From Bdellovibrio svalbardensis (GTDB lineage: Bacteria > Bdellovibrionota > Bdellovibrionia > Bdellovibrionales > Bdellovibrionaceae), in contig NZ_JANRMI010000004.1 of the NCBI RefSeq assembly GCF_029531655.1, positions 248,001 through 312,000 of the forward strand: a DNA stretch of 64,000 bases, read 5' to 3'. Numbering within the stretch: position 1 is the first letter of the stretch; each line of letters starts with the position of its first letter. Below are positions 33,369 to 49,741 of the stretch, piece by piece. Both the position numbers and the translations under genes were made by a program. The notes under the pieces were generated by a model. The model did not search any database. It was given only the letters and a program-made list of their open reading frames with translations, and was not told the origin of the DNA.

Positions 33369-34421
33369 ATGGTTAACAAAGTCGCACGCAAAGCAATGAC
33401 ATTCGCCTCAGCGGTAGCAATGCTTGCAGGTTGCGCTAAAGGTGGAGGATCTTTCTCTACTCTCGCAGACTCTGCAGACTTCAAGCAGGAAGCTGTGTAC
33501 GTCCCTAAGAAGATCGATATCCTTTGGGTGATCGACAACTCGGGCTCTATGGCATCATCACAAGCTAACTTGGCAAGTAACTTTCAATCATTCATTTCAC
33601 GCTTCAACCAATTCAACTATGACTTCCACATGGCAGTGGTCACAACAGACGGCTGGGAAAAGCAATTCAACGCGAACAGTGTAAAAGCAAAAATCAGAGA
33701 TGGAAATACAACTCATTCTGGTGTGTTTGTTATGGATAAGAACACTCCAAACCTCAGCAGTGTCTTTGATATCAACGCCAAGGTTGGCGTAAATGGGAAT
33801 GGTGACGAACGTGCCTTTGAAAGTCTTTATCAGTCTTTAAGCAATGAACCAACGAATGATGCCCTTGGTTTCCGTCGTTCTGACGCATTCCTGGCGGTTA
33901 TTATCGTGAGTGACGAAGACGACTTTTCAAATTCAACAACTGGTTTGATAGAAGACTACAACAGCGCCAGTGTTTATCCTGTTTCAAAATATACTAACTT
34001 CCTGGACTCTTACACTGGTGGCTTGGCGGCTGGAAGAAACTACTCCGTAAATACAATTTCCATCCAAGATACAGCTTGTTTGAATCAGTTGAATACCGGG
34101 GCGCAAAAGGTTGCTCAGCGCTATGCTGCGATTTCGGATGCAACAGGCGGCGTGAAAGCTTCGATCTGCTCTAACTTCGGAACTTCATTGTCACTCATCT
34201 CTGACTCAATCATCCAGCTTTCCAGCGCTTTCAAGCTGACTCGCGAACCAATCCCAGAAACTATCGTGGTAAGTGTTGATGGAGTCGTCGTTCCGCAAGA
34301 TGCAACGAACGGCTGGACATATGATGTAGCAACTATGATTCTGACTTTCCATGGCAGCGCAGTTCCTGGCGCGAACACAAGCGTGAAGATTAACTTCGAT
34401 CCAAAATCGATCCAATTGTAA
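33369..34421 (+). CDS. VWA-domain lipoprotein, candidate CglB-like gliding adhesin
   Basis: AGGAGG lies 10 bases before the ATG. The 350-residue product has a lipoprotein signal (AVAMLAGC, Cys22) and a von Willebrand A domain with an intact MIDAS start, DILWVIDNSGSMASSQANL (DxSGS near residue 56), plus IIVSDEDDFSNS, the third metal-ligand region. Two further cysteines (DTACLNQL, ASICSNFG) may form a disulfide. A small beta-domain with PETIVVSVDGVVVPQDATN closes the protein. It is the first gene of an Agl/Glt-type operon, 11 bases before the next gene. In Myxococcus the gliding adhesin CglB is also a VWA lipoprotein, so I infer a surface or outer-membrane adhesin role; sequence homology to CglB itself is not shown. 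Confidence 0.75.
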   Translation: MVNKVARKAMTFASAVAMLAGCAKGGGSFSTLADSADFKQEAVYVPKKIDILWVIDNSGSMASSQANLASNFQSFISRFNQFNYDFHMAVVTTDGWEKQFNANSVKAKIRDGNTTHSGVFVMDKNTPNLSSVFDINAKVGVNGNGDERAFESLYQSLSNEPTNDALGFRRSDAFLAVIIVSDEDDFSNSTTGLIEDYNSASVYPVSKYTNFLDSYTGGLAAGRNYSVNTISIQDTACLNQLNTGAQKVAQRYAAISDATGGVKASICSNFGTSLSLISDSIIQLSSAFKLTREPIPETIVVSVDGVVVPQDATNGWTYDVATMILTFHGSAVPGANTSVKINFDPKSIQL

Positions 34422-34432
34422 GAAGGTGTTGT

Positions 34433-35044
34433 ATGAGCGGTGGGGCACAAGCAACAGTTACAAAAGGTCAAGAGTGGTTTATTCTTCGTGGGGACATGAA
34501 ATACGGTCCTTACGAGTACAGATCCTTGATCACAATGATCCAAAATGGCGAGCTCTATGATTATAACTTCGTATGGGCGCCGCACCTCGAGAATTGGACT
34601 CTCGTAGGTGATCTTCAGGATTTCTCCAAAGATCGTCTTTGCCGTCTCATCGAAAGCAAAGATCATCTCGCGGGATCTTTCAAAGACCGAAAAGTACCAC
34701 GTGTTGATTTAACGACACCGGTATACGCTCACAACGATCATTCATTCTTTGATGGTCAGACCGTCAGCGTCAGCGAAAATGGAGCTCTCGTTCTTTTGAA
34801 CGATCCCCTTCTTCTGCCTGGTCAAAAAATCATGCTTCATTTCAGAGTGTCTGAAGTGAATTCCCAATCTTTTAATGTTCTTTGTGAGATCGTTCGCAAG
34901 AACTATTCAAAGCAAAGACTGAATGTAAAATCCGGCCTGCATTATGCTGTTCGTTTCCTCGAAGTGCAAGGGACTGGTTCTGAGCAACTTACAAAATGGT
35001 CGCGCGGTGGCGTTGCCAAGGAGGAAACAAATGGCATTTCTTAA
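34433..35044 (+). CDS. GYF-like plus PilZ domain protein of the gliding operon
   Basis: The 203-residue cytoplasmic protein has an N-terminal GYF_2-type domain (EWFILRGDMKYGPYEYRSL ... YNFVWAPHLENWTLV, residues about 14-62). A PilZ domain follows (about 85-190) with the c-di-GMP-binding RxxxR motif (RKVPRVD) and a near-canonical second motif (SVSENG, with Ser for the usual Asp/Asn). GYF domains also occur in the cytoplasmic part of GltJ of Myxococcus. The gene overlaps the TolQ-like motor gene by 14 bases. I infer that it binds c-di-GMP and docks to the motor or spanning protein to switch gliding. Confidence 0.75.
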   Translation: MSGGAQATVTKGQEWFILRGDMKYGPYEYRSLITMIQNGELYDYNFVWAPHLENWTLVGDLQDFSKDRLCRLIESKDHLAGSFKDRKVPRVDLTTPVYAHNDHSFFDGQTVSVSENGALVLLNDPLLLPGQKIMLHFRVSEVNSQSFNVLCEIVRKNYSKQRLNVKSGLHYAVRFLEVQGTGSEQLTKWSRGGVAKEETNGIS

Positions 35045-35735
35045 ATTCATGAATGAATCCGGTGTCGTAGGCTGGACAATTCTTTTGACTGGTATCGGAT
35101 CTTTGATCCTTGTCGCAGAACGAGCAAAAATGCTCTACAAAGAGTATGGGATGAATTCCGAAGAATTCATGGGCAAAGTCCAAACTCTGGTGCTTGCAAA
35201 AAAACTTGATGAAGCTCTTTTGATGTGCGCACAGCTTGAGAAAAAACCTCTGGCGGCGGCTTTCAAAACGATCTTGGAAAAAGCCGATCGTGATGACGAT
35301 TCAATCTTCCAGGCTCATGATATCGCTTTGTCAGAGAATATTCCTTTGTACACAAAACGCCTGCACTATCTTTCAATGCTTGCCAACGTTGCAACATTGC
35401 TGGGTCTTTTGGGTACGATCCACGGTTTGATCCTGTCGTTCCAAGCGGTTGCACAAGCCGATCCTGCGCAGAAACAAGCTTTGCTGGCGCAAGGTATCTC
35501 GGTTTCAATGTATACGACAGCTTTGGGCTTGGCGGTTGCGATTCCGGCGATGGTGTTCTTCTCATTCCTGACTTCACGTCAAAATGAATTGATGGAAGAG
35601 ATGCAGGAAAAATGCAGCAAGCTTGCGGAACTTCTCACAAGCGCTCATATCCCGAACCTTACTCGTCAGAATGTTTTCCCTGACCATGTGACTGCAACTA
35701 TGACACCTCCAGCTCCCGGCGCGAAAGTCTCTTAA
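35031..35735 (+). CDS. aglR: TolQ/ExbB/MotA-family motor subunit (AglR-like)
   Basis: The start at 35031 (MAFLKFMNESGVVG) has AAGGAGG at six bases; longer in-frame starts lie inside the preceding gene. The 234 residues contain three membrane helices (VGWTILLTGIGSLILVAE; NVATLLGLLGTIHGLILSF; GISVSMYTTALGLAVAIPAMVFF) and the family LGLLGT motif. With two TolR-like partners it would form a proton-driven channel in the inner membrane. The arrangement TolQ-TolR-TolR next to TPR, FHA/TonB-C and barrel genes is that of AglR-AglQ-AglS in Myxococcus, which powers gliding. A Tol-Pal or Ton role is less likely because no tolA, tolB, pal or tonB gene is present. Confidence 0.8.
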   Translation: MAFLKFMNESGVVGWTILLTGIGSLILVAERAKMLYKEYGMNSEEFMGKVQTLVLAKKLDEALLMCAQLEKKPLAAAFKTILEKADRDDDSIFQAHDIALSENIPLYTKRLHYLSMLANVATLLGLLGTIHGLILSFQAVAQADPAQKQALLAQGISVSMYTTALGLAVAIPAMVFFSFLTSRQNELMEEMQEKCSKLAELLTSAHIPNLTRQNVFPDHVTATMTPPAPGAKVS

Positions 35736-35775
35736 CCGAGACGAAGCACTAACTGAGAGATGTGGGTAGACTCAG

Positions 35776-35801
35776 TACTCCGGCGAAGCCGGAGTGTAGA
35801 C
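35776..35801 (+). repeat. Short palindromic repeat, copy B (between motor genes)
   Basis: TACTCCGGC-GAA-GCCGGAGT plus the tail GTAGAC. A degenerate second unit (TCCGGACGAAGGACGGAGT) follows at 35806-35826. Both lie in the 104-base gap between the TolQ-like and first TolR-like gene. Confidence 0.8.
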
Positions 35802-35839
35802 AAAAATTCCGGACGAAGGACGGAGTAAAATTGTGAGGT

Positions 35840-36385
35840 ATGAGACGCGCTAAAAAAATTAAAATCAATCATCACAGTGAATTCGACCTGGATTTGGCTC
35901 CCCTGCTTGCCGTGATGGTAAAACTTGTACCGGTTCTTCTGGTTTCATCAGCCTTCGTGCAAATGATGGTTATCGAAACTGAATTGCCACAAGTTGTCAG
36001 TGAAGCGATTCAAAAGCAGGACCAAGATAAAACACCTACCATTATCGCTCTCGAAGTGGATGGCAAAGACGGCTTTAACATTGTAGTGACTGAAAAAGGT
36101 CAGGACAAAGTTGAAAATGTTCCGATGAAAGATGGCGCTTATGATCTGCCAGCTTTGCATCAAAAACTGGTTGCCGTCAAAAAAGCACATCCTGAAATCT
36201 TTAAACTTGAGCTCAATCCCGACTCCAAAGTTCCTTACAAAGAGATCGTGAAAATCATGGATGAAGTCCGTCAAGCTCACGACCCTTCCGTAAAATTCCC
36301 TGTTTTCGACACAAAACAAGGAAAGAACGTGGACACACCGTATATGTTTCCAGAGATCGTATTCTCTAACATGATGGAGGGCTAA
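35840..36385 (+). CDS. TolR/ExbD-family protein lacking the membrane aspartate (AglQ/AglS-like)
   Basis: The 181 residues begin with a basic tail and one membrane helix (LAPLLAVMVKLVPVLLVSSA, residues about 19-45), then a periplasmic ExbD-type domain. In TolR/ExbD the helix carries a proton-binding Asp in a PLLD motif; here the position is Ala24 (PLLA), with Lys28 one turn later. The second TolR-like protein encoded three bases downstream keeps the Asp. The pair therefore looks functionally asymmetric: one proton-carrying and one structural subunit. The periplasmic part would bind peptidoglycan or couple to the transducing proteins. Confidence 0.75.
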   Translation: MRRAKKIKINHHSEFDLDLAPLLAVMVKLVPVLLVSSAFVQMMVIETELPQVVSEAIQKQDQDKTPTIIALEVDGKDGFNIVVTEKGQDKVENVPMKDGAYDLPALHQKLVAVKKAHPEIFKLELNPDSKVPYKEIVKIMDEVRQAHDPSVKFPVFDTKQGKNVDTPYMFPEIVFSNMMEG

Positions 36386-36388
36386 ACC

Positions 36389-36886
36389 ATGTCACGCCGA
36401 CGTCGTTATGACCCGAATATTAAAAAGAATTCCACCTTTGCTTTGAATATCACTTCGATGACGGACATGTTCACCATCCTCCTGGTGTTCCTGCTCCAAA
36501 CTTATTCGACGTCAGATGTTCAAATCATACCTGAAACAGGTCTGCGTCTTCCAAGCTCGGCTTCACAGTCGAATCCGGTGGAGGCAATCAAGATTTCACT
36601 TTCAGGCGAAGCACTTAAAATTGACCAGACAAAAATCGCTGATGTGAAGAATGAAGATTTCCTCCCACAGGATTTGGAAGAAAAAGATTCAAACTTCATT
36701 AAGCCTCTTTTCGAAGAGCTTGATAAGCTTGCAAAAAATTCTTCTGACAAAGCTCATGTGAAAGAAGGCCGTATTCTCCTCCAAGCTGACAAAGAACTCC
36801 CTTATGCAACTTTGCGCAAGGTGATGTACACAGCATCTATGGCAGGTTTTCCTCAGTTGAAACTGGTTACATTAGTTGGAGAGTAG
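36389..36886 (+). CDS. TolR/ExbD-family motor subunit (AglQ/AglS-like)
   Basis: GGAGGG precedes the ATG. The 165-residue protein has an Arg-rich cytoplasmic start (MSRRRRYDPNIKK), a membrane helix with the proton-binding aspartate (NITSMTDMFTILLVFLLQ, Asp26) and a periplasmic domain ending in RILLQADKELPYATLRKVMYTASMAGFPQ, the ExbD/TolR C-terminal pattern (joined here from two short parts). It should provide the proton path with the TolQ-like channel. It lies between the Asp-less paralog and the large TPR gene, which starts five bases later. Confidence 0.83.
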   Translation: MSRRRRYDPNIKKNSTFALNITSMTDMFTILLVFLLQTYSTSDVQIIPETGLRLPSSASQSNPVEAIKISLSGEALKIDQTKIADVKNEDFLPQDLEEKDSNFIKPLFEELDKLAKNSSDKAHVKEGRILLQADKELPYATLRKVMYTASMAGFPQLKLVTLVGE

Positions 36887-36890
36887 TTTT

Positions 36891-39800
36891 ATGGCACTGC
36901 GTACAGTAGTTCTTCTTATGGCGATACATCTTTTTTCGATTTACTGTTTTGCAGAGACAGAAAAAGGTCTATTGCCCGAAGTTCGTTTGAATAACAACGA
37001 AGATGACAATGAGAAAAAGGCTTTCAGCAGCGAAATCCTGATCACTCGCTCTGAAAACAAGGCCATCGAGTCCCTGCAAGCCATTCTTAAAAAACAAAAA
37101 GGTTCTAAAAACGAAGCGGATCTTTGGTATCGTTTGGCTGAACTCTATATGAGAAGATCGAAATCAGGTCGTTTCTTTGACCTGCACAAAGACACGCCGA
37201 TGATGAAACTTTCCTCGTTCCCAGTACCTAACGAAAAAGGTTCTGAGGCGATGAAGCGCGCAATTAAAATTTACTCCAAAATTGAAACTGAGTTTCCCCA
37301 ATTCAAACAGATGGACTCGGTTCTGTTTAACAATGCTTTTGCACATCAGCAAATTGGCAAATTTAAAGAATCAGATCTTCTTTACGGCAAACTCCTTCAA
37401 AACTTTCCAAAGTCCCCACTGGTTCCTGACGGAACTCTGGCCTTGGGCGAACTCCTTTATGATCAAGGCAAATTCACCCAGGCTTTGGAACAATTCCAAC
37501 GCCTGGAAAAGTTCCCGCAAAGTCGCGTGTACTCTTACGGAATGTACAAGGCGGCCTGGGCTTACTACAATCTTCATGACAGTGAAAACGGCATCAAAAA
37601 ATTGGTTGAGGTCGTAAAAAACAATCCTCCTCTTCAAGAAGGTGAAGTGCCAACAAACCGCCATAATCTCCGTCGCGAAGCAATGCGTGATTTGACGGTT
37701 TTCATTGGTGACACCTACCCTGCAAATAAACTCTATTCTTTCTTTGAGGATATCACGACGGAAGAGGAGCTCGGCCAGTCTATGACGGACCTTGCGAAAC
37801 TTTATGATTCCCACAGCCGTCAAAAGGAAATGAACATCTTCCTCGAAGAGTATATCGAAAAACGCTCTTCCGGTCCTGACGTGGTTAAATCCCATTTAGC
37901 CTTGGTGGAAGCTAATGAGGTCTTGAAAAAGCGCGATAAAGTTCTTGATCACTTGCAAACAGCCAGCGATCTTTGCCGCAAGGACTCTACCTGGAGAACC
38001 TTGCAAAAGCCTGATGTTGTTCAATCCTCATGTACAGAAGGCTTCCGCCACACCAGCCTGGATATGGCTAAAAAATGGTGGGACATCTGGACGAAGAACA
38101 AACAAAACGTGGCTTTCTCTGACCTGACTCAAAAATTGTTCAAATTGATGTTGGACAACGAAGACCCAGCAAAACCTGATTTGAAAACACGCTTTGCGTA
38201 TGCCGAGCTTCTTTTCCAATTGGAAAACTATGATGACGCTAGCGTTCAATACAAGATGGTTGGCGAAAAAGCTTCAGAAGATCCAATGCGCCATGACGCA
38301 AACTATGCCGCTCTTTTCTCTAAAGAGAAAAGCATCGACAAGAAAAAAGACGCTTTGAAAGAAGCGGAACGTAAAGAATTGGCGTTGAACTACCTGGCGA
38401 AACACCCGACTGGCAAATTTGCGACAGCCGTCAAATTCAAAATCGGTCACATCGCTTACGAAGAAAACAACTATCCTGAAGCAGAAAAATGGTTGAAGCC
38501 TTTGACTTTGGTTAAAGGCACTGAGAACGCAGATATCAAAAAGAAGTCCGAGGACTTGGTTTTGGATATGCTCAATATCAAGAAAGACTACGCGGGAATC
38601 AAAGCCTTCTCTAAACAAGTCATGACTTCTTCAACCGACGAAAATCGCAAGAAGAACATGAATAAAATCTTCGAAGAGGCTCATTTCACGGAAGTTCAAG
38701 AGTTTGCCAAAGCTGGCGACAAAGACGAAGCAGCGCAAAAACTTATTGCCTACGCGAAAGAGCATGATGGATCTAAACTTGCCCAGGACGCTACTTGGCA
38801 GGCCATCGGTCTTTACTACACTGAAGGCAAAGTCTTCGAAGGCGCGGAACTCTGCTTGAAATATGCCGGCAAATATCCTGATGACAAAAAAAATCTGGAT
38901 GCTTTGAAGGACGCTGCCAAAGCTTATGCTGAAATCGGCCAAGTTTCAAAATCAGCGGAAACCTTGGTTAAAATTGCGGATCTCGACAAGAAAAACCGCA
39001 ATTCACACCTTGAAACCGCTGCTGACATCTATTTGTTGGAAAAGAAAATCAAAGATGCTCGTTCTGCTTATATGAACATCCTCTCTGCGGCTGACAATAA
39101 AACGCAGGAGCGCATTTACGCAAAATTGATGGATTCCTATAAAGACGAACAGAATTCCCCTGAGTTCGCGAAACTGCAAAACCAGGTTCAAGCGAAGGGT
39201 TTGGAGCCTTATACAACTCAAATCATGATTGATAAGGCGAAGGCATTGCTGGCAGCCGGAAAAATGACTGCGGCTTTTGATCTTTCTATGAAAGCCAACG
39301 GTCGCAACGTACCGGCAGAGGTTCGTGCGGAAGCCCGCTTGATACAAGCCCGTGTCCTGGAAAAAGAATTGACTCAACAAAGTGTTAAAGCTCGCGAAGA
39401 GAAATTTGCGACAGTCCTGGGAATTAAAACCGAAAAACTCGACAAAGCCCAAACTGCTTATGTGACAGCTTTGAAAATGAGTAAAGATCCCTACCAACAA
39501 CTTGAAGCCATGCGCGGCATTGACCGTTGCTACGGTAACTATATCGAGGCGCTAACAAGCATGCCTCTTCCTGCTTCATTGAAACCAGAAGAGCAACAAC
39601 AGTTGCGCGCTGAGCTCGCAAAACTCATCACGCCTATTCAAGACAAGAAGAATGATAACGAGGCGAAGCTTAAAGTTCTGGCCGCCTCTAAAGGGCAAGC
39701 CGCAACGACAGAAAGAGTTTACGCAAACATCCGTGTTGATCAGACCGTGACTCCAAATGTGCAGTACCCTTCTGTTGAAAAGATGACAGCCTTTTTACCT

Positions 39801-40610
39801 GCATCGACAGATATGAGCATCGGAAAGGTGTCTCGTTTCGAGATACGTCCAGAGACTCGCAGTGGAAAAACCTGCAATAAATCTGCGGTTTTAACAGGGC
39901 AACTTGCGAAGCTTAATCCGATCGAAATTGCAGGAAATTGTTATGGTTCTAGACAGTTCGAAATCGTTGAAAAGCTGGGTCTTGAGCTTGCGAAAAACAA
40001 AGAGACCAGAGCTCTGGGTTTGTTCTACGCCAGCGTTGGCGCAGAAGCTCGCGGATTCTCTGAAAAATCTTTGTGGATGATTGAAGCGGCATTGAAGCTT
40101 CAACCTGAAGCTTCACCATTCATCTATCAGAAAGCACGCTTGGTTTATAAAGACGATGGCTTGAATGCAGCAATGCAATTTTTCGATAAAGTTTTAGACA
40201 TGCAAATGCCTTCTACAGAAATGCAAACTTTCGCAGGAGTGAAGGCTTTCTCAGAGGGAGATTTTACTAAAGCAATTGAAAAATTCTCTTCGCTTAGTAA
40301 AGAACAGTTGTATACTTTCAATGTAGGCGCCGTGATGAGTGAAGCATACGCTCAGAAAGGTGAAGTCGATAAAGCCTTGAGCACAGTGAAAGACTTGCTT
40401 AACGCGAAGAAAGACAATGTCGACTTCCTCTTGGAGCAAGCTCACTTGTTCGAAACTTACAAAGGCAGCCCAACACTCGCTTTGGATTCTTATGAAAAGG
40501 CATTCAAAGCAAGTTCACAAGTTGAGCTGCGCGATTGGTTAGGTAAGAAGATACAGTATTTGAAAAATCAAAACAAAGTCGGTCAGAACGTAATCTCAGG
40601 AGACTTGTAG
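36891..40610 (+). CDS. Large periplasmic TPR protein of the gliding operon (GltD/GltE-like)
   Basis: The start at 36891 gives the signal peptide MALRTVVLLMAIHLFSIYCFA; 1239 residues in all. The mature protein is almost entirely tetratricopeptide-like helical repeats (for example DLWYRLAELYMRRS, SVLFNNAFAHQQIGKFKES, TLALGELLYDQGKFTQALEQ, AAKAYAEIGQVSKSAE, and near the end GAVMSEAYAQKGEVDKALS). An insertion around residues 950-1010 (YPSVEKMTAFLPAS, CNKSAVL) has few repeats. It is soluble and periplasmic, or loosely held at the outer membrane. Large TPR proteins of similar size are part of the Glt complex in Myxococcus, where they help bridge inner and outer membrane. The specific orthology is not established. 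Confidence 0.75.
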   Translation: MALRTVVLLMAIHLFSIYCFAETEKGLLPEVRLNNNEDDNEKKAFSSEILITRSENKAIESLQAILKKQKGSKNEADLWYRLAELYMRRSKSGRFFDLHKDTPMMKLSSFPVPNEKGSEAMKRAIKIYSKIETEFPQFKQMDSVLFNNAFAHQQIGKFKESDLLYGKLLQNFPKSPLVPDGTLALGELLYDQGKFTQALEQFQRLEKFPQSRVYSYGMYKAAWAYYNLHDSENGIKKLVEVVKNNPPLQEGEVPTNRHNLRREAMRDLTVFIGDTYPANKLYSFFEDITTEEELGQSMTDLAKLYDSHSRQKEMNIFLEEYIEKRSSGPDVVKSHLALVEANEVLKKRDKVLDHLQTASDLCRKDSTWRTLQKPDVVQSSCTEGFRHTSLDMAKKWWDIWTKNKQNVAFSDLTQKLFKLMLDNEDPAKPDLKTRFAYAELLFQLENYDDASVQYKMVGEKASEDPMRHDANYAALFSKEKSIDKKKDALKEAERKELALNYLAKHPTGKFATAVKFKIGHIAYEENNYPEAEKWLKPLTLVKGTENADIKKKSEDLVLDMLNIKKDYAGIKAFSKQVMTSSTDENRKKNMNKIFEEAHFTEVQEFAKAGDKDEAAQKLIAYAKEHDGSKLAQDATWQAIGLYYTEGKVFEGAELCLKYAGKYPDDKKNLDALKDAAKAYAEIGQVSKSAETLVKIADLDKKNRNSHLETAADIYLLEKKIKDARSAYMNILSAADNKTQERIYAKLMDSYKDEQNSPEFAKLQNQVQAKGLEPYTTQIMIDKAKALLAAGKMTAAFDLSMKANGRNVPAEVRAEARLIQARVLEKELTQQSVKAREEKFATVLGIKTEKLDKAQTAYVTALKMSKDPYQQLEAMRGIDRCYGNYIEALTSMPLPASLKPEEQQQLRAELAKLITPIQDKKNDNEAKLKVLAASKGQAATTERVYANIRVDQTVTPNVQYPSVEKMTAFLPASTDMSIGKVSRFEIRPETRSGKTCNKSAVLTGQLAKLNPIEIAGNCYGSRQFEIVEKLGLELAKNKETRALGLFYASVGAEARGFSEKSLWMIEAALKLQPEASPFIYQKARLVYKDDGLNAAMQFFDKVLDMQMPSTEMQTFAGVKAFSEGDFTKAIEKFSSLSKEQLYTFNVGAVMSEAYAQKGEVDKALSTVKDLLNAKKDNVDFLLEQAHLFETYKGSPTLALDSYEKAFKASSQVELRDWLGKKIQYLKNQNKVGQNVISGDL

Positions 40611-40624
40611 TATGGAGGGTACAG

Positions 40625-40891
40625 GTGAAAACTATCATCGAAGCGACGTTTATAAAAACGTTGATGATCAGTTTCATTCTCTTGGGGGCAACGACTGCTT
40701 TGGCCAAACAAAGAACAGTCCGTAAAGTCCAAGAAGTAAATTTTGGTGACATGAACCTCAAGGGTACGATTCGTAATCCTGACGGAGCCTATCTTGTGCA
40801 GAAAAAAGGTATAAAATTTATGCCTCTTTATGATGTGCAAAAAGATATGGATGGCCGTATTCGCGAATCCGCATTGTACCTGAACAACTAA
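40625..40891 (+). CDS. Small periplasmic protein of the gliding operon
   Basis: A GTG start with GGAGGG upstream opens an 88-residue protein with a signal peptide (FIKTLMISFILLGATTALA). The 55-residue mature domain contains VNFGDMNLKGTIRNPDGAYL and FMPLYDVQKDMDGRIRESA. I do not recognise the family. Its place between the TPR protein and the FHA/TonB-C protein, 16 bases before the latter, indicates a component or stabiliser of the same envelope complex. Confidence 0.7.
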   Translation: MKTIIEATFIKTLMISFILLGATTALAKQRTVRKVQEVNFGDMNLKGTIRNPDGAYLVQKKGIKFMPLYDVQKDMDGRIRESALYLNN

Positions 40892-40907
40892 ACACAAGAG
40901 GTGTTAC

Positions 40908-42386
40908 ATGCTCACTCTGATTGTACGTCAGTCTCTTAAAAACGGGACTGCGAAAACTTGGAAGTTGCGCTCATCAAATTCGGCTCAAACCTTCGGTTCA
41001 TCCCGTTTGGCCGACGTTATCTCCATCGCCCCAACGACAAAGGGAATTCAAGGCATTTTTGAATTCCGCGACAATCAATGGTGGTATGTGAATATGGATA
41101 TGCAGACCGGTGCCAAAATCTCTGGCTCCCCGGCTCTACTGCTCAATAAAGAGCAAACTCTTGAAATGGAAGACTGCACTCTTTCGTTCACTCCAGTGAA
41201 ACGAGAATCAGATCTTTACCAACGCCTGGAAACTGTGGGTCGCGACAGCTCTGCGATGGGCGTGGAATTGGGAAAGCAATTCCAGCTGTATATGGTTAAG
41301 CAATCAGGTCGCGTTCTTGAAACAAGAATCCTTCCTGTAAATAAAAAATTTAAACCTGCTTTCTCCAATAACAAAGTCGCTTGCATTCCATCGCCTGAAT
41401 GGCACCGCCAAATGGTGGATGACGTTGAAGTGAGCCAAAGAACCTTGTCTTTGGAAGATGCCGCAAGACTGGCGCGCTTCTCTCCAAGTCAATTGGTCGA
41501 TCAAGACTCTAAAAAAGGTGTGATCTTGATGTTGGGAGCAGCTGCTTTCTTCATCACAGTAGCGATTTTCTCTCCAAAGAGTTCACACACTGTGGCTGAA
41601 ACGGCCCCTCCGAAAGTGGCGCAAAAGATTATTGTTAAAACTGAATTGAAACCAAAACGCAAAAAATCAGAAGTGGCGAAGCCTGCTCAACAGGTTGTTG
41701 TGAAACAAGCTCCTGCTGCAGCAGGTCCTAAGGCAGAAATGCCCACTGGCGGTGGTGGTGGCAAAATTGCCAACATGATGAAATCCATTTCTGGTGGTCG
41801 TATTTCTCAATTGATCGGAAAGGTTTCCGCTCAAGGTGCTAAAAGTGCCAATGTCGTTTTTGCAAATGGCGTAAAAGCCGGTGCCGGTCCATCCGGTCGT
41901 GCTCTTGCCGCCGTTGGAAATATGGAACGCTCCGGTCGTGACTGGGGTGCTGCAGGAACAGGTACTGGCGTGATGATTTCCACCAATGGTAAAGGAGGCG
42001 GTAAAAACGCATCTGGCATGGGCGGATTGGTTGCTGGGGGCACAGGCTCTGGCGGTGTTGGTTTGATCGAGGAAGAATCAGAGATTATTGGCGGTTTGGA
42101 TCGCGAAATCATCGCTCAATATATCAAATCGAAATTGGGCCAAATTCTTTATTGTTATGAAAGACAACTCAGTGCCAATCCTGATCTATTCGGGAAAGTC
42201 GCTGTGAAATTCACTATTGGACCGACAGGTTCAGTAGAACAACAGTTAATTGGGGACACAACGCTTAAGAACGCAACCGTCGAGGGATGTATATTGAATA
42301 GGGTTGCCGCATGGAAGTTTCCGAATCCGCAAGGGGGAACTCGCGTGCTCGTAACGTATCCATTTTTATTCAAGAGTACAAACTAA
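40908..42386 (+). CDS. FHA-like / transmembrane / TonB-C-like spanning protein (GltG/GltJ-like)
   Basis: The 492-residue protein has a cytoplasmic N-terminal FHA-like domain (residues about 1-95; SAQTFGSSRLADVISIAP stands where FHA domains have the GRxxxxDI motif, but the Arg is displaced). One membrane helix lies at 203-221 (GVILMLGAAAFFITVAIF). A Pro/Lys-rich and then Gly-rich periplasmic linker follows (230-395), and a C-terminal TonB/AgmX-type domain (about 400-492: YIKSKLGQILYCYERQL, VKFTIGPTGSVEQQ, AAWKFPNPQGG). This is the architecture of GltG/GltJ, which in Myxococcus reach from the cytoplasm to the outer membrane and couple motor force to the barrels. It starts 16 bases after the small gene and is followed by an outer-membrane barrel gene. 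Confidence 0.8.
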   Translation: MLTLIVRQSLKNGTAKTWKLRSSNSAQTFGSSRLADVISIAPTTKGIQGIFEFRDNQWWYVNMDMQTGAKISGSPALLLNKEQTLEMEDCTLSFTPVKRESDLYQRLETVGRDSSAMGVELGKQFQLYMVKQSGRVLETRILPVNKKFKPAFSNNKVACIPSPEWHRQMVDDVEVSQRTLSLEDAARLARFSPSQLVDQDSKKGVILMLGAAAFFITVAIFSPKSSHTVAETAPPKVAQKIIVKTELKPKRKKSEVAKPAQQVVVKQAPAAAGPKAEMPTGGGGGKIANMMKSISGGRISQLIGKVSAQGAKSANVVFANGVKAGAGPSGRALAAVGNMERSGRDWGAAGTGTGVMISTNGKGGGKNASGMGGLVAGGTGSGGVGLIEEESEIIGGLDREIIAQYIKSKLGQILYCYERQLSANPDLFGKVAVKFTIGPTGSVEQQLIGDTTLKNATVEGCILNRVAAWKFPNPQGGTRVLVTYPFLFKSTN

Positions 42387-42403
42387 TACGACGGGGGTAA
42401 TTC

Positions 42404-43192
42404 GTGTTTAAGAAATCATTACTAGTAATCAACATGTCTGTCATCTTGTGGGGCATCGGTGCCGCATCAACAGCAACAGCTCAAGATACCAAACCAGAAG
42501 CCAAACAAGAGCGTGGTAGCGACAAACTCGATATCAAAAAGCTCGAACAAAAATATTGGGCGGCTAAAGATGACGATTTCAGTGTCGTGCAAAATCGTCG
42601 CTACACCAAGGCCGACAGATTTTATTTAACGGCGTCAGCGGGTATTCCCTTCAATGACCCTTACAGCACAGGTTCTATCTTTGCTGCGAATTTGGGTTAT
42701 TTTATGAATGAGCGCTGGGGCTTTGAGTTCAACTACAATTCCGCGAACATGAAAGATAATGATGCCGTTGACCAGTTCGTGAATACTTACAAAGTTATGC
42801 CAGATCATAACATCTTTAAGTCTTCACAATTTGTCTCAGCAATCTGGGTTCCCTTCTATGCGAAAATGAGCGCTTTGGATAAAGCGATCATCTACTTCGA
42901 TATGGGACTTTCAGTCGGCGTAGGTAACTTGAACTATGAAATTGCAAAAGTTGAAGGCAATGATTCCAAAGGAACTTTTGCTTACAAACTTGGCGTCTTC
43001 CAACAGATTTTCTTCTCTGAGCACTTTGCCGTGAGAGTCGACCTGAACAACACCTGGTCGAGCCAAAACAAGATGAAGTATTATGTTCCAGGATCTACGG
43101 TCAACGGTAACGCCATCACAGGTACCCGTGATCAGGGAAGCGAAACTGTGAACGACACCTCATTGATGATTGGTCTTACTTACTGGCACTAA
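42404..43192 (+). CDS. Outer-membrane beta-barrel protein of the gliding operon (GltA/B/H-like)
   Basis: A GTG start preceded by GGGGG opens a 262-residue protein with a signal peptide (ILWGIGAASTATA). It has alternating beta strands with aromatic girdles (RFYLTASAGIPFND, WGFEFNYNSANMKD, AIIYFDMGLSVGVGNLNYEIA, FAVRVDLNNTWSSQNKM) and ends in YWH, an aromatic residue near the C terminus as needed for BamA recognition. It resembles the 8-stranded outer-membrane barrels linked to gliding clusters in myxobacteria. In that model it receives force from the spanning TonB-C protein encoded just upstream. The stop codon is directly followed by palindromic repeat copy C. Confidence 0.72.
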   Translation: MFKKSLLVINMSVILWGIGAASTATAQDTKPEAKQERGSDKLDIKKLEQKYWAAKDDDFSVVQNRRYTKADRFYLTASAGIPFNDPYSTGSIFAANLGYFMNERWGFEFNYNSANMKDNDAVDQFVNTYKVMPDHNIFKSSQFVSAIWVPFYAKMSALDKAIIYFDMGLSVGVGNLNYEIAKVEGNDSKGTFAYKLGVFQQIFFSEHFAVRVDLNNTWSSQNKMKYYVPGSTVNGNAITGTRDQGSETVNDTSLMIGLTYWH

Positions 43193-43193
43193 C

Positions 43194-43217
43194 TACTCCG
43201 ACAAAGTCGGCGTGAAC
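43194..43217 (+). repeat. Short palindromic repeat, copy C
   Basis: TACTCCGAC-AAA-GTCGGCGT with a shortened tail (GAAC). It lies one base after the barrel gene stop, in the 55-base gap before the next gene. Confidence 0.75.
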
Positions 43218-43247
43218 AAAGTACGATTCCTTGGGGCGGGGGTCCTT

Positions 43248-45368
43248 ATGAATAAGTCATTGATGATATTTTTCAGTCTTCCACTACTCTGCATGTCTGC
43301 ATGGGCGGATCCTGCTTTGACCGTCAAGAAAGCAGCGCGCCCAGCAGCGGCAAACTTAAAAGTTAAAACAAGCCTGGTTCCTACCTTCGAAGTTTATCAA
43401 AAGAAGGTAGTGAAAGGAAAAACGGAAGTTTACAAGGTTAAGAATATTCCTTTACTTGACCTCGGCGAAGAGCGCGAAGTGCAAGCGGCGACTTTAAGTC
43501 CTCTGCGCCTCCCCGCCGCCGCCGAAGTCAAAGAACAGGAAGTTCGCCGCCACCCACCCGTTCAGGCGCTGAACTTTGCGGTCACACCTTATACCTTGAC
43601 CGTCGAGAACCCAAAACAAATTACGAGCGCCGAAGCCTTTGCAAAGATTCCGGATGTCAAAATCTTGAATCCAGTGGCGGCACCAGTAACCCAGGAACCT
43701 CAGGTCACTCTCGTAAAAATGGACGAGCTTAAACCAAACGACTACAAGCTTTTGCAAGCTTTGATTTTCCTCGAGATTCAAAAGAACTATGAATTGGCTA
43801 TGGGTTTGTTTGCGGAGTTGATGGATGATCCCGAACACCGCATTGAGGCATTGTACAACTATGCACAAACTGCCAAGGGCATGGGACTTAATTCTGAATT
43901 CAGAGAATACATGATCCAGGTTGCCAAAGAGACAAAAAACAAGGATTGGCAACAACGTGCCACTGAAGCACTGGTGAAAAACATCACAGTTCTTCAACAC
44001 TCTGATATTGCCATGATTGACCCTTTGGTCAGTAAATACGAATTGGATGTCACAAAAAACGATGACTACCAATTAACTCGTGCAAAATACTACTCTGAAG
44101 TGGGACAGTTGGGTCTGGTCGAAGACGCTCTGATCTATATCTCAGAAACATCTCCTCGCTATCCTGACGCTTTGATGCTGTCTTCTTTGTTGAGCTACCG
44201 TCAAGGCAAGGTCGATGAAGCTATTATCAATTTGGAAAGACTGATGCAAATTACAGAGGCCAATAAAACGTCACAGATTCGTTCCGTCGGTGCATTGACC
44301 TTGGCGCGCATGCAATTCCAAAAAAGCCAATACAAAGACGCTTTCCAATCTTACTTGAAAGTGGACAAATCCAACCCTCTTTGGTTGCAAGCAATGATTG
44401 AAAGTGCCTGGACGCAGATTCTGGGTGAAGACTACGAAGGTGCTGCAGGGAATATGTTCTCATTGCACACGGATTTCTTTAAAAACGCCTTTGCTCCGGA
44501 ATCATACGTAGTTCGTACCGTAGGCTACTTGAATCTTTGCCAATATGGTGACGGCGCGGAAGTCCTCAATGATATGCGCCAAAAATACAGCCCATGGAAG
44601 AAGAAGCTGGAAGCTTACAACTCCACACATAAAGATCCCCTCAACTATTATGATACCGTCAAGAGCTGGATTAAAAATTCAGACTTAAAAGAAGTTGATG
44701 GTTTGCCAAGATCCTTCATCGTCGAGCTGGCTCGCCATCCCGGCTATATGAGCGTACAAAAGCAAATCAACACTTATGAAGACGAAATCAGTCGTTTCAA
44801 CAGAATTGCTTTGAACTTGATCAACATGGAACGCGATCTTCTAAAGAAACAAAATGCGGCGAGCAAAGAACTTGCTGATGCAAAAACAAAAATAGGCAAA
44901 AACAGTCCTTCCGAAGGTGCTGTCCAAGCCATACAGACTGCCGAGAAGAAGCTATTGAGCTACCGCATTCAGTACCATATCGCCAACAAAGCCCGAACTT
45001 CGATCAAAAATATCAGAGCGCAGGGCTTGGCACGTATTGATAAAGAAAAAGATGTACTTCGCAAGGCCGCGGCAAAAACGTTACAAACCCGCTTCACTGA
45101 GATGTATGCCAGCTTGAATAAGGTGTTGGACCAAAACGACGTGCTTCAGTATGAATTGTACTCTGGCGCGGGCGAGCATCTTCGCTATCAAATGGCCGGC
45201 GGTGATGTAAATACGAAAGAACGTGCTGAATTAAAAGTGCAAAAAGAAAAAAGTTTGAACTGGAAATTTAAAGGTGAAATCTGGGAAGATGAAGTAGGTC
45301 ACTACCGTTCTTCTTTGAAAAACGTCTGCCCACAAGAATCAAATGTGGCTGGTTTGTCTGAACAATAA
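43248..45368 (+). CDS. Secreted TPR/helical repeat protein of the gliding operon
   Basis: The ATG at 43248 (MNKSLMIFFSLPLLCMSAWA signal peptide) is chosen over an upstream in-frame start that would read through the palindromic repeat. The 706 residues contain a Pro/Val-rich first 130 residues and TPR-like repeats in the middle (EALYNYAQTAKGMGLNSEF, ALMLSSLLSYRQGKVDEAI, LTLARMQFQKSQYKDAF). A long coiled coil follows near residues 500-640 (RDLLKKQNAASKELADAKTK). It is periplasmic or held at the outer membrane. It is comparable in type to GltE/GltC-class periplasmic parts of the gliding machine, but the family was not recognised precisely. Confidence 0.7.
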   Translation: MNKSLMIFFSLPLLCMSAWADPALTVKKAARPAAANLKVKTSLVPTFEVYQKKVVKGKTEVYKVKNIPLLDLGEEREVQAATLSPLRLPAAAEVKEQEVRRHPPVQALNFAVTPYTLTVENPKQITSAEAFAKIPDVKILNPVAAPVTQEPQVTLVKMDELKPNDYKLLQALIFLEIQKNYELAMGLFAELMDDPEHRIEALYNYAQTAKGMGLNSEFREYMIQVAKETKNKDWQQRATEALVKNITVLQHSDIAMIDPLVSKYELDVTKNDDYQLTRAKYYSEVGQLGLVEDALIYISETSPRYPDALMLSSLLSYRQGKVDEAIINLERLMQITEANKTSQIRSVGALTLARMQFQKSQYKDAFQSYLKVDKSNPLWLQAMIESAWTQILGEDYEGAAGNMFSLHTDFFKNAFAPESYVVRTVGYLNLCQYGDGAEVLNDMRQKYSPWKKKLEAYNSTHKDPLNYYDTVKSWIKNSDLKEVDGLPRSFIVELARHPGYMSVQKQINTYEDEISRFNRIALNLINMERDLLKKQNAASKELADAKTKIGKNSPSEGAVQAIQTAEKKLLSYRIQYHIANKARTSIKNIRAQGLARIDKEKDVLRKAAAKTLQTRFTEMYASLNKVLDQNDVLQYELYSGAGEHLRYQMAGGDVNTKERAELKVQKEKSLNWKFKGEIWEDEVGHYRSSLKNVCPQESNVAGLSEQ

Positions 45369-45384
45369 GGAAGGAATCTTTTAT

Positions 45385-46041
45385 ATGAAAATTTCAACTC
45401 TGACTCTTGGAATGTTAACTCTTGGTGTTTTGATGAGCCTTCATTCAACTGCTTTTGCCCAGAACTCGGCGAAAGAGGGTCTTGAACGCATCAAATCAAA
45501 CCTTAACAATTCAAAAACCAATCTGACTGAATACGAAAAGAACCTCAAAACTGTTGAAGGCAACTTAGGCGAAGTCGGCAAAGCCAAAGGCCAAGTTGAA
45601 GGACAACAAAAACAAGTCCTGCAACAAGTCGAGGAAAATAATCAAGCCATGGGCAAAGTGGGAAGCAAGGAAAAAGACATCACCGCTTTGATCAATGAAG
45701 AAAAGTCCAAGACAGCCCTGGAGAATCAAAAAATCCAAGAATACGAAGCCATGATTGCCAAGATCAAAGAAAACCAAAAAAAGCGTGAAGCCAACGTCGC
45801 TGACTATCAAATGCAGCTGAACCAACTGCAGGAAGAAAAAAAGATTTGGCAATCTCGTGCTGCAAATCTTAAAGATCAGCATGAACAAGTGAGCCAAAAA
45901 ATCAGAACTTTGGCGAACGAGGAAAAAGAATGGAAAGCCAAGCAGCAAGGCTACCAAGGCGAAGTCAAACGCTGGAGTAAGGAAGTTGAAAGACAGCAAA
46001 AAATTAGCGACTCTTACAACTCGTTGGCGGAAGTAAAATAA
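45385..46041 (+). CDS. Periplasmic coiled-coil protein, last gene of the gliding operon
   Basis: GGAAGGA precedes the ATG at 45385. The 218-residue product has a signal peptide (MLTLGVLMSLHSTAFA) followed by one nearly continuous coiled coil rich in Glu, Lys, Gln and Asn (NLTEYEKNLKTVEGNLGEVG, YQMQLNQLQEEKKIWQSRAA). No enzyme motif is present. It lies 16 bases after the preceding gene and 30 bases before a strong terminator, so it ends the transcript. I infer a structural role in the envelope complex; no family is recognised. Confidence 0.7.
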   Translation: MKISTLTLGMLTLGVLMSLHSTAFAQNSAKEGLERIKSNLNNSKTNLTEYEKNLKTVEGNLGEVGKAKGQVEGQQKQVLQQVEENNQAMGKVGSKEKDITALINEEKSKTALENQKIQEYEAMIAKIKENQKKREANVADYQMQLNQLQEEKKIWQSRAANLKDQHEQVSQKIRTLANEEKEWKAKQQGYQGEVKRWSKEVERQQKISDSYNSLAEVK

Positions 46042-46070
46042 ACTCAGATTTCAAAAACTAATTACCCCAA

Positions 46071-46097
46071 GGAGGTCTTAACGACCTCCTTTTTTTA
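46071..46097 (+). terminator. Rho-independent terminator of the gliding operon
   Basis: GGAGGTC-TTAAC-GACCTCC is followed directly by seven T. It lies 30 bases after the last gene of the operon. Confidence 0.92.
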
Positions 46098-46238: not shown

Positions 46239-47879
46239 ATGACGTCATCTATGGGCAGTTGGTTTCGAGGGATCAAGGGGAAACTTCTCTTTGCGGCAGC
46301 ACTTCCTGTTTTGGGTTTCACCATCGTATATTTTATTGCGCACGCAAACTTCAATACCCTGGGAGACCTGCTCAGCACCTCCAATAAATTCATTATCCCT
46401 AATCTTCAAGGCGTCGGAGAAATGCGCCAGGCGCGAAATAAATTCGGCTATCAAATTTGGGCGGCGATGAACATGCCCACCACAGAAAAACGCATGGAAC
46501 GTTTGAAAATCGTTCACCAAGCCATCGAAGAGTTTGATAAAGGTTTTAAGCTCTATAATTCAGTTCCCAGCCCTGCAGAACTGGCGCCCACTGACAAATT
46601 GGGTAATGACAATATTGTAGAGTACCTGGCTCTTCTGAAAAAATGTGCCGACCTTGTGGAGAGTGGTAAACCCGAAGCCTATGATGAGGTAAAACACCAA
46701 CTTGATGGCCGTCTTTGGGAGCTGGGCACAACCATGAACAAAATGACGACTGCGGCATTAAAATACTTTGATGAGACGGCCCTTGCAAATACAAAGACTG
46801 CAGAAGACACCATCAAGACTGCAAACAACATCATCTTGTTCACAACACTGACGGCCTGTCTTTCGATTTTTGCTATCCTCATGTTTATCGCCGGCCGGAT
46901 ATCCTCATCAGTGGGCTCCATTGCCTCTCGCCTGACAACAGCAGGAAGCAATGTCGCATCTTCTGTGGAGCAGCTCAATGAAGCTGGCAACAGCCTTTCT
47001 CAGTCTTCCACTGAAGCAGCCGCCTCTTTGGAAGAAACCGTGGCAGCCCTCGAGGAATTAACTTCAATGGTGCAAATGAACTCGGACAATGCCAAACAAG
47101 CGGCGACTCTTTCCGCGTCTTCACGAGAAGCCGCCGAACGGGGCGAACGCGAAATTCAAAGTCTCATTCAATCGATGACGACCATTTCTCAATCATCAAA
47201 GAAAATTGAAGAGATCATCTCAGTCATCGACGATATCGCCTTCCAGACTAATTTGCTGGCATTGAATGCCGCTGTCGAGGCCGCTCGAGCTGGCGAACAA
47301 GGAAAAGGATTTGCCGTCGTTGCCGAAGCCGTTCGCAGCCTGGCTCAGCGAAGCTCTGCTGCTGCCAAGGATATCACCAGCTTAATTAAAGATTCAGTAT
47401 CTCAAATCGAAGATGGCAGTCAGATCGCAGACCAAAGCGGCGCTGTTCTTACAAACATTGTGACTTCGGTCAAAAAGGTTTCTGATCTCAACAGTGAGAT
47501 TGCAGCGGCGAGCTCTGAACAAACCACCGGCATCCAACAAATCAGCAAAGCGATGAATCAGCTGGATCAAGCTTCGCAGTCGAACGCCGCCTCAGCGGAA
47601 GAGATTGCCGCGACCAGTGGGGAGATCAATAACCTTGCGGTGACAGCTCAGAATCTCACAGTTGAGCTCAACCTGGTTGTTATGGGGGCGCAAGAAGGGT
47701 CCAACTTCCCTACGCTTGAATCCAGTTCAAAAGCGACCCGAGTCACCGCCTCGAAGCAGTCCAATCTCACACCGTTACGAAGAAACGCCTCAGGAAAAGA
47801 CACCAAGAGAACTTCCACAAATGCGATTCCGTTCGATGAAGATACAAGGTCTCGTGTTGGAACAACGGATGGTTTCTAG
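46239..47879 (+). CDS. Methyl-accepting chemotaxis protein 1 of 3
   Basis: The 546 residues contain a first membrane helix ([19 protein letters not shown]), a periplasmic helical-bundle sensor region (about 40-190), a second helix ([21 protein letters not shown]) and a cytoplasmic signalling domain. The strongly conserved hairpin tip is [20 protein letters not shown], with methylation-type Glu/Gln/Ala heptads on both sides. There is no evident HAMP domain: the second membrane helix leads straight into the adaptation helix. After the signalling domain comes a flexible tail with AIPFDED and the terminal VGTTDGF, shared by the next two receptors. It should signal to CheW/CheA encoded elsewhere. 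Confidence 0.92.
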
Positions 47880-48006
47880 ATGGAACAAAAACATGTTTGC
47901 GTTTGGGTATCCGAGTCTTCCTAGTTAAAATGTATTAAAGGACAACCCGACCATTGTGGGGCTCCTCATGATCATAACTTGAACGTAACTTGTAATGAAA
48001 CTGGAC

Positions 48007-48035
48007 TTAGCCTGGTGTTGCAAAGAACCGAACAA
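48007..48035 (+). promoter_or_regulatory. Candidate sigma-28-type promoter of chemoreceptor 2
   Basis: TTAG at 48007 and CCGAACAA at 48028, 17 bases apart, match the chemoreceptor 3 upstream pattern (TAAG, 17 bases, CCGAAGAA). Both recall the FliA-type TAAA / GCCGATAA promoter of motility genes, with one base more spacing than the enteric consensus. Confidence 0.4.
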
Positions 48036-48082
48036 GATAACATTAAATATAATAAATAGTACTAATTACTCGAGAGGATCTT

Positions 48083-49741
48083 ATGAAGAATAATTCAATA
48101 TCAGGTTGGTTTCAGGGGATTAAAGGCCGCCTTTTACTTGCCGCCTTTTTACCATTAATTGGCATCGGCATCATCTTTGGTGTCGCTTTCAATGGTCTCA
48201 ATAAGACCAACGTCATACTCAACACCGCGCACGAATCGATCATCCCAAATTTCGCAGCAATCGGAGAAATGCGTCAGTCCCGAAATAAATTTTCATCAAA
48301 AATTCTTGAGGCCACCTTACATGGTCAAAAACCAGACGAGCGTGCTGCTTTTTTGAAATCAGCTCGAGAGGGAATCAAAGAGTTTTCTGACAACTACGTA
48401 GCTTATACGAAAGCTCCCTTCCTTCCAGGTGAAGAAGTCATCCACGACAAGGTAAAAGCAGAAATTCCCGAGTTCATCAAAACCATGGAAACCATCGCAA
48501 CCTTGATGGAAGCCAACGATCCAGAAAAAACAAAACAAGCGGGCGACTTGCTTGAAGGACCGTTTGCTAAGATCGGCGCCCATGTTCGCGACTTCAATCG
48601 CGCTGTCGCAGATCTCTATGATAAAACTGCTGAAGCCCAAGCTTTAGAGGCTAAAGCCACACAAAAAGAAGTCTTCAACATGATGCTTCTTATCACTGCT
48701 ATATCTGCAGTGGCGATCTTCGGGGTCCTTCTTTGGATCGCTTCAAAAATCTCTCACTCAGTGGGCTCGATTGCTGATCGCCTTACTGGCGCCAGCACAC
48801 AAGTTGCCACCGCCGTTGAACAACTCAATGAAGCCGGCAACAGTCTTTCCCACTCTTCGACAGAAGCTGCCGCTTCTTTGGAAGAAACCGTGGCTGCACT
48901 TGAAGAATTGACTTCAATGGTGCAGATGAACTCAGACAATGCGAAACAAGCCGCAGCTTTGTCAGCATCATCTCGTGACGCTGCTGAAACAGGTGAAAAT
49001 GAAATCAAAAACCTGATCACGTCTATGACAGAGATCTCCCGTTCTTCTAAGAAAATCGAAGAGATTATTTCAGTGATTGACGATATCGCGTTCCAAACAA
49101 ATCTTTTGGCTCTGAATGCGGCGGTCGAAGCTGCTCGCGCTGGAGAACAAGGTAAAGGTTTCGCGGTTGTTGCAGAAGCAGTTCGCACACTCGCACAAAG
49201 AAGTGCCGCCTCTGCCAAAGACATCAACTCCTTAATCAAAGAGTCCGTTTCACAAATTGATCGCGGCAGTGAGATTGCTGACCAAAGCGGGACTGTCCTT
49301 TCGAATATTGTGAATTCCATCAAAAAGGTTTCTGATTTGAATAACGAGATCGCAGCCGCAAGCTCTGAACAAACGACAGGAATCCAGCAAATCAGCAAAG
49401 CGATGAATCAGCTGGATCAGTCATCTCAGTCAAATGCAGCATCTGCCGAAGAAATTGCAGCGACCAGCGGTGAGATCTCGAATCTTGCCGTAAACACAAT
49501 GAACCTGACTGTTGAACTGAATACCGTCGTCCTTGGGGGAGACACCGGACGCAGTGCCCCTCCTGCAGAGACAACTTTGAAAACAAATAAACCAACTCCA
49601 AAGACTGCCTCTAAGAAAACCAATGTTATTCCTATGCGAAAAGCCGCCTCTGTAGTCGCCGAAAAGAATGTAAAATCAGCAGAAGCAATTCCGTTTGATG
49701 AAGACGACAGAGCCAAAGTAGGCAATACAGACGGTTTCTAA
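48083..49741 (+). CDS. Methyl-accepting chemotaxis protein 2 of 3
   Basis: The 552-residue paralog of the neighbouring receptors has membrane helices at about residues 14-35 and 190-215 ([21 protein letters not shown]) and a diverged periplasmic bundle. Its signalling domain is almost identical in the tip ([20 protein letters not shown]) and adaptation regions to the other two. The linker is Lys/Thr-rich and ends IPFDED...VGNTDGF. GAGAGGA precedes the ATG. The sensor region differs most, so ligands probably differ while the downstream partners are shared. Confidence 0.93.

What the first reader, a model, noticed from the sequence alone, without database searches (positions are those of the whole stretch)
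33369..46041. Complete gliding-machine operon headed by a VWA lipoprotein and a GYF+PilZ protein
Eleven closely spaced genes run from a VWA lipoprotein through a TolQ-TolR-TolR motor, two repeat proteins, a TonB-C spanning protein and a barrel, and end at a strong terminator. The motor and spanning genes match the Agl/Glt layout of Myxococcus (established knowledge). Having the candidate adhesin (VWA, intact DxSGS) as first gene, cotranscribed with the motor, suggests a self-contained focal-adhesion module: motor, transducer, barrel, adhesin and switch. Myxococcus CglB is also a VWA lipoprotein, but the link here rests on domain type and position.
Basis: partly seen in the sequence, partly recalled or inferred. 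Interest (0 to 1): 0.8.

Follow-up and report, generated by a model that had tools for sequence, protein, structure and literature searches.

The report
Bdellovibrio gliding-type motor operon with adhesin
This is the Bdellovibrio version of a known bacterial gliding-machine operon, carrying a surface-adhesin gene and a second-messenger sensor, and one of its two motor 'axle' proteins has lost the proton-carrying acid that the same protein needs in Myxococcus.

Summary
Eleven same-strand genes (33369-46041) end at a terminator. The window lies in a Bdellovibrio genome. In B. bacteriovorus HD100 the operon is Bd1473-Bd1483, described as an agl/gliding operon since 2008-2010. The VWA protein is Bd1483, a published MIDAS-family lipoprotein; the PilZ protein is Bd1482.

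What I add by comparison:
(1) The order VWA > GYF-PilZ > TolQ > TolR1 > TolR2 > fused GltD-GltE > GltF > GltG > barrel > GltC > coiled-coil is unchanged in 15 of 16 Bdellovibrionaceae operons read whole.
(2) VWA lipoproteins joined Glt-type operons at several different positions.
(3) TolR1 (AglQ) has lost the proton-carrying Asp, which is Asp28 in Myxococcus AglQ and essential there, in 45 of 56 operons (A/S/G). Every such TolR1 has an Asp six residues earlier. TolR2 keeps its Asp in 65 of 65.
(4) TolQ has an extra C-terminal tail, mostly with Pro-Pro; two relatives that lost GYF-PilZ lack the tail.

'Complete' and 'CglB-like adhesin' are only partly supported: the VWA domain is homologous to CglD and to a putative CglB, but is not a reciprocal best match. 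Gliding by this operon remains unproven.

The parts
33369..34421 (+). VWA/MIDAS outer-membrane lipoprotein, orthologue of B. bacteriovorus Bd1483; candidate adhesive head
   Evidence: Lipobox Cys22, DNSGS MIDAS (D56, S58, S60 invariant in 14 relatives); NCBIfam MIDAS adhesin 2e-17 and CglD 3e-14; AlphaFold model pLDDT 79.5, integrin I-domain Z 15.7 and integrin beta headpiece Z ~14
34433..35044 (+). GYF_2 + PilZ cytoplasmic protein (Bd1482 orthologue); candidate c-di-GMP/cGAMP-responsive regulator
   Evidence: Pfam GYF_2 7e-8, PilZ 2.3e-12; RxxxR and the last Gly in 52/52, first Asp/Asn of (D/N)xSxxG usually S or E
35031..35735 (+). TolQ/AglR motor wheel subunit (Bd1481 orthologue) with extra C-terminal tail ending TPPAPGAKVS
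   Evidence: Pfam MotA_ExbB 1.7e-26; polar Thr129 and Thr163 invariant in 68 sequences; tail alignment
35776..35796 (.). REP-like hairpin between tolQ and tolR1
   Evidence: about 60 copies genome-wide with matched stem changes, none for the reversed control
35840..36385 (+). TolR1 = AglQ orthologue (Bd1480); transmembrane Asp replaced by Ala, Asp present six residues earlier
   Evidence: ExbD 7e-21; motif LDLAPLLAVMVKLVP versus LNIVPYLDILMNL in Myxococcus AglQ
36389..36886 (+). TolR2 = AglS-type axle subunit; keeps the transmembrane Asp
   Evidence: ExbD 1.2e-16; Asp in 65/65
36891..40610 (+). Fused GltD-GltE periplasmic TPR protein, 1239 aa
   Evidence: TPR domains; two separate ORFs in most other families of the order
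40628..40891 (+). GltF/CglF-like small periplasmic protein, 87 aa
   Evidence: NCBIfam CglF 6.7e-5, below its cut-off; conserved position
40908..42386 (+). GltG transducer: cytoplasmic N-terminal part, one TM, Pro-rich linker, TonB-C-like tail
   Evidence: NCBIfam GltG 1.8e-37 (below cut-off), AgmX/PglI C-terminal domain 5.9e-31 above cut-off
42404..43192 (+). Outer-membrane beta-barrel (GltA/B/H-like position)
   Evidence: TIGR04565 OMP_myx_plus 1.6e-24 above cut-off
43248..45368 (+). GltC-like TPR protein
   Evidence: NCBIfam GltC 2e-31, below cut-off
45385..46041 (+). Exported coiled-coil protein, last gene, conserved order-wide
   Evidence: signal peptide and coiled coil in sequence; position conserved
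46069..46091 (+). Intrinsic terminator
   Evidence: 9-pair stem then T-run

Best explanation
This is the order-wide Agl/Glt-type trans-envelope motor operon of the Bdellovibrionales (HD100 Bd1473-Bd1483). Shown: gene content, conserved order, homology of the parts, loss of the AglQ aspartate with an Asp six residues earlier, and the TolQ tail. Inferred: a TolQ5 wheel turns a TolR1:TolR2 heterodimeric axle driven by protons. GltG passes the force through GltD-E, GltF and GltC to an outer-membrane barrel. The VWA lipoprotein, held at the surface by this complex, grips the substrate or biofilm matrix through its MIDAS metal site. The GYF-PilZ protein reads c-di-GMP or cGAMP and docks by its GYF domain on the Pro-Pro tail of TolQ; it would thus do the switching job that GltJ and MglA do in Myxococcus. 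Because only TolR2 keeps the usual channel Asp, the axle is asymmetric, so TolR1 should not be able to form a working motor alone.
For: Family hits for each part. Same 11-gene order across genera of the family; order-wide core with GYF-PilZ next to TolQ. VWA genes in Glt-type operons at different positions: head in Bdellovibrionaceae; between GYF-PilZ and TolQ in G037, G040, G044, G045, G053; after GltC in G058; after TolR2 in G131; at the end of HD100 Bd0412-0420 and Bd2368-2377. Integrin-like fold. Putative CglB's best match in HD100 is Bd1483 (1e-11). TolR1 Asp swap 45/56, TolR2 Asp 65/65; AglQ D28N abolishes proton conductance and paralyses the machine (PMC3858216). TolQ tail absent in the two relatives lacking operonic GYF-PilZ, G029 and G031. 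Literature: insertions in Bd1481 and Bd1483 lower biofilm predation; bd1480 and the VWA gene bd3099 are surface-induced and depend on Bd0367; Bd1482 was already proposed as a receiver for DgcA; MglA is not needed for gliding in Bdellovibrio.
Against: No published gliding assay of this operon was found. HD100 has three other Glt-type operons; Luciano 2011 preferred Bd0828-0838, and Bd0838 (AglS) is needed for prey attachment. Deletion of bd1483 has no prey-invasion defect. The VWA is not a reciprocal best match of CglB. The GYF-tail link is weak after phylogeny: Pro-Pro in 40 of 51 with and 1 of 5 without GYF-PilZ, but only three independent pairs, and several families keep GYF-PilZ without Pro-Pro. 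The PilZ motif is not fully canonical.
Confidence: 0.62

Rival explanations
1. The operon powers something other than gliding, such as envelope remodelling, polymer or slime transport at the surface, or biofilm adhesion, as the Agl-Nfs machine does for the Myxococcus spore coat.
For: Four Glt-type operons in HD100 with different expression patterns; Agl-Nfs precedent; knockouts of Bd1481/1483 tested only for biofilm and lawn predation; Luciano preferred another operon for gliding.
Against: bd1480 is induced on surfaces and lowered in the Bd0367 mutants with the gliding defect; the operon is kept in most genomes of the order.
Confidence: 0.3
2. TolR2 forms a homodimeric axle that alone drives the motor; TolR1 has become a non-motor accessory, for example a peptidoglycan anchor or inhibitor.
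For: TolR1 lost the channel Asp while TolR2 kept it in 65/65.
Against: TolR1 stays as a complete TolR-like protein, directly before TolR2, with an Asp at -6 and a conserved TM in all 45 swapped copies; AglQ is essential in Myxococcus.
Confidence: 0.3
3. The VWA lipoprotein is an independent adhesin that only shares a transcript with the motor; it is not a part of the machine.
For: Outside Bdellovibrionaceae the closest VWA relatives often sit without a motor gene (L052-L057); the bd1483 deletion mutant invades normally.
Against: Different VWA paralogues entered Glt-type operons at several positions and in several families; the Myxococcus gliding lipoproteins CglB and CglD carry VWA domains.
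Confidence: 0.25

Closest known systems
B. bacteriovorus HD100 Bd1473-Bd1483 agl operon (Bd1483 MIDAS lipoprotein, Bd1482 PilZ, Bd1481 AglR, Bd1480 AglQ)
   Same: Orthologous operon, same 11 genes in the same order (L045; mapping from a 3,782,950-base single-contig genome, motor positions and published gene roles)
   Different: A different Bdellovibrio species; the VWA is 62% identical. The AglQ Asp loss, GltD-E fusion and TolQ tail were not found in the papers read.
Myxococcus Agl-Glt gliding machine (AglRQS, GltA-K, CglB)
   Same: TolQ-TolR-TolR motor, GltD/E/F/G/C-like proteins and barrel, VWA lipoprotein
   Different: One operon; no GltH/I/J/K matched in it; GYF sits on a soluble PilZ protein rather than on GltJ (GltJ domain content from memory); AglQ lacks Asp28; VWA not a reciprocal best match of CglB
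Bd0875 MIDAS-family adhesin (NCBIfam NF052240)
   Same: Lipobox plus MIDAS domain inserted in a small beta domain; profile match 2e-17
   Different: 63 bits against a cut-off of 700; the orthologue Bd1483 lacks the cap unique to Bd0875
Integrin beta headpiece and integrin I domains
   Same: VWA fold, and in beta subunits a VWA inserted in a beta-sandwich domain
   Different: Sequence identity about 8-18%; fold likeness only

Membership tests
Agl/Glt-type motor complex | TolQ plus two TolR proteins next to each other | tested here: met
   MotA_ExbB and ExbD hits; order kept
Agl/Glt-type motor complex | GltD, GltE, GltG, GltC core | tested here: met
   GltG 1.8e-37, GltC 2e-31 (below the curated equivalog cut-offs); GltD-GltE fusion
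Agl/Glt-type motor complex | Conserved transmembrane Asp in both TolR-like subunits (AglQ D28); a feature of AglRQS, not used here to define the wider class | tested here: not met
   TolR1 has Ala; TolR2 keeps Asp
Agl/Glt gliding machine sensu Myxococcus | GltH, GltI, GltJ, GltK | tested here: inconclusive
   No such gene matched in the operon; the rest of the genome was not searched for them here; reported absent from B. bacteriovorus by Luciano 2011
Agl/Glt gliding machine sensu Myxococcus | Loss of the genes stops gliding | not testable with these tools
   No assay found for this operon
CglB | Reciprocal best match with a CglB | tested here: not met
   Putative CglB (L222) best HD100 match is Bd1483, but the best Myxococcus match of the VWA profile is a 998 aa protein. 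L222 as CglB rests on size, lipobox and Cys content only
MIDAS-family lipoprotein (Bd0875/Bd1483) | Lipobox plus intact DxSxS MIDAS domain inserted in a small beta domain | tested here: met
   orthologue of Bd1483 by operon position
PilZ c-di-GMP receptor | RxxxR and (D/N)xSxxG | tested here: inconclusive
   RxxxR 52/52, Ser 48/52, Gly 52/52, but the D/N position is mostly S or E

The most novel reading that the evidence does not exclude
A natural asymmetric 5:2 rotary motor: the axle is an obligate TolR1:TolR2 heterodimer in which only one subunit has the usual mid-membrane proton carboxylate, the other carrying it about 1.7 helix turns nearer the cytoplasm. This would break the ten-fold stepping said to be almost certainly universal for such motors, and would settle whether the AglQ and AglS counterparts pair with each other in this lineage.
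Probability: 0.4. Interest if true: 0.8.

Novelty: new variant of a known kind. Interest (0 to 1): 0.55.

Why it matters
A 2026 review calls the motor, adhesin and force path of Bdellovibrio gliding a major open challenge (PMC13104615). The comparison singles out one operon, kept across most of the order, with a candidate adhesin and a candidate second-messenger switch. The missing AglQ aspartate is sharper: it is not known whether AglQ and AglS pair as hetero- or homodimers, and ten-fold symmetry is treated as almost certainly universal in 5:2 motors (PMC9389320). A lineage with one Asp-less axle subunit makes both questions testable by point mutation.

Tried and rejected
CglB membership of the VWA: rejected as a membership claim for lack of a reciprocal best match. 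Riboswitch or other known RNA in the operon or its leader: none. Sequence search of solved structures with the VWA profile: nothing. GYF-PilZ structure: low confidence (pLDDT 63.5), not used. GYF presence against Pro-Pro tail as a general rule: Fisher p 0.015, but only three independent pairs on the tree, so suggestive only. Promoter scan: no excess over shuffles. My first idea of a simply 'missing' acid in TolR1 was revised when Asp at -6 appeared in every Asp-less Bdellovibrionales copy.

Full report
Where the window lies. The window is part of a Bdellovibrio genome (3.9 Mb, 10 contigs). Genome G006 of the same genus has exactly 3,782,950 bases in one contig, which I know as the length of B. 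bacteriovorus HD100. Its motor genes at 0.398, 0.787, 1.403 and 2.282 Mb fit the four published agl operons Bd0412-0420, Bd0828-0838, Bd1473-1483 and Bd2368-2377 (PMC2797640). Our operon matches the one at 1.403 Mb. Its eleven genes on the minus strand give VWA = Bd1483, PilZ = Bd1482, TolQ = Bd1481 and TolR1 = Bd1480. This agrees with the papers: Bd1483 lipobox MIDAS protein, Bd1482 PilZ at the 5' end of a gliding operon, Bd1481 aglR, bd1480 aglQ.

Check of the observation. All eleven ORFs, the lipobox, the intact MIDAS motif and the terminator are there. Domain searches agree. The order is the same in 14 of the 15 other Bdellovibrionaceae operons read whole (L038-L051, L074); the exception, L047, lacks GYF-PilZ. 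A close TolQ relative (E at or below about 1e-60) is found in about 116 of 141 genomes of the order (my count), so this is an old unit. In other families GltD and GltE are two ORFs; here they are fused.

The VWA protein. It is an outer-membrane lipoprotein type with an integrin-like VWA fold. It is related to CglD and to a putative CglB of Myxococcus sp. CA023, and the putative CglB finds Bd1483 first in HD100. But the VWA profile finds a 998 aa choice-of-anchor protein first in Myxococcus, so I do not call it CglB. Most informative is the shuffling: VWA genes lie at the head of the operon in Bdellovibrionaceae, between GYF-PilZ and TolQ in five genomes of four other families (f2, f5, f6, f9), after GltC as three tandem copies in G058, after TolR2 in G131, and at the end of two other HD100 operons. 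The two HD100 proteins were read through and carry lipobox and MIDAS-like motifs. Recurrent linkage of different paralogues supports a working tie to this type of motor; by itself it does not show adhesion.

The GYF-PilZ protein. It is next to TolQ in most of the order. HD100 also has a motor-free pair, GYF-PilZ followed by a VWA gene, at 3.008 Mb (L067). This is probably Bd3100-Bd3099, by rough position and because Bd3100 is listed as a pilZ gene and bd3099 as a VWA gene; the numbering is not verified. TolQ carries an extra tail of about 25-30 residues, usually with Pro-Pro near the end. In G029 and G031, which lack the operonic GYF-PilZ, TolQ stops right where the tail begins. Over 56 operons Pro-Pro occurs in 40 of 51 with and in 1 of 5 without GYF-PilZ nearby, but the tree gives only three independent pairs. 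I take GYF-to-tail docking as a plausible, unproven idea. In Myxococcus the GYF domain sits on GltJ (from memory of Attia 2024), which Luciano 2011 finds absent from Bdellovibrio, and Bdellovibrio glides without MglA. A PilZ-borne GYF would fit a change of input signal.

The motor. In Myxococcus sp. CA023 the aglRQS-like genes (L221) have Asp in both TolR proteins, and that of the first is residue 28. This identifies it as AglQ, whose D28N abolishes proton conductance. In the Bdellovibrionales operon TolR1 has A, S or G there in 45 of 56 copies, and all 45 have Asp instead of Asn six residues earlier; the other 11 have Asn or Ser there and keep the usual Asp. No copy has both or neither. TolR2 has its Asp in 65 of 65. 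On a TolQ tree the change needs at least two events, so the perfect pairing is not 45 independent cases; it shows long retention. A Nannocystis AglQ-like protein has Asn at the place. The TolQ threonines of the ion path are kept. The other HD100 operons, and their copies in the window genome that were aligned, keep Asp in both. Hence TolR1 is unlikely to make a standard ion channel alone, which favours a TolR1:TolR2 heterodimer, with a TolR2 homodimer as rival.

Verdict. The gliding role is likely but not proven here or in the papers read. The parts that look new, as far as the papers read tell, are the relocated acid in AglQ, the TolQ tail, the GltD-E fusion and the repeated recruitment of VWA lipoproteins.

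Noticed in passing
35776-35796 (and about 60 places in G000): REP-like hairpin TACTCCGGCGAAGCCGGAGTG between tolQ and tolR1; other copies show matched stem changes (GGC/GCC, GAC/GTC, AGC/GCT); none for the reversed control pattern.
   Followed up: partly
46239-51503: Three consecutive methyl-accepting chemotaxis protein genes with near-identical signalling domains directly after the operon.
   Followed up: no
G000:C1:968012-969588; L067:5912-7749: Motor-free pair GYF-PilZ followed by a VWA lipoprotein, a duplicate of the first two operon genes in the other order.
   Followed up: partly
L281 (G058): Three tandem VWA lipoprotein genes at the end of the Glt operon.
   Followed up: no
L228, L229 (Nannocystis): AglQ-like TolR with Asn in place of the channel Asp in L228; in L229 another such TolR stands next to a large VWA protein without a TolQ matched nearby.
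   Followed up: partly
G025 (single contig, 2.7 Mb): A same-family genome without an operon-type TolQ that still keeps a short GYF-PilZ gene.
   Followed up: no
L079: Record titled 'Comamonas sp. KCTC 72670' carries an MglA 98% identical to the Myxococcus query and Myxococcus-like VWA genes; the title looks wrong.
   Followed up: no
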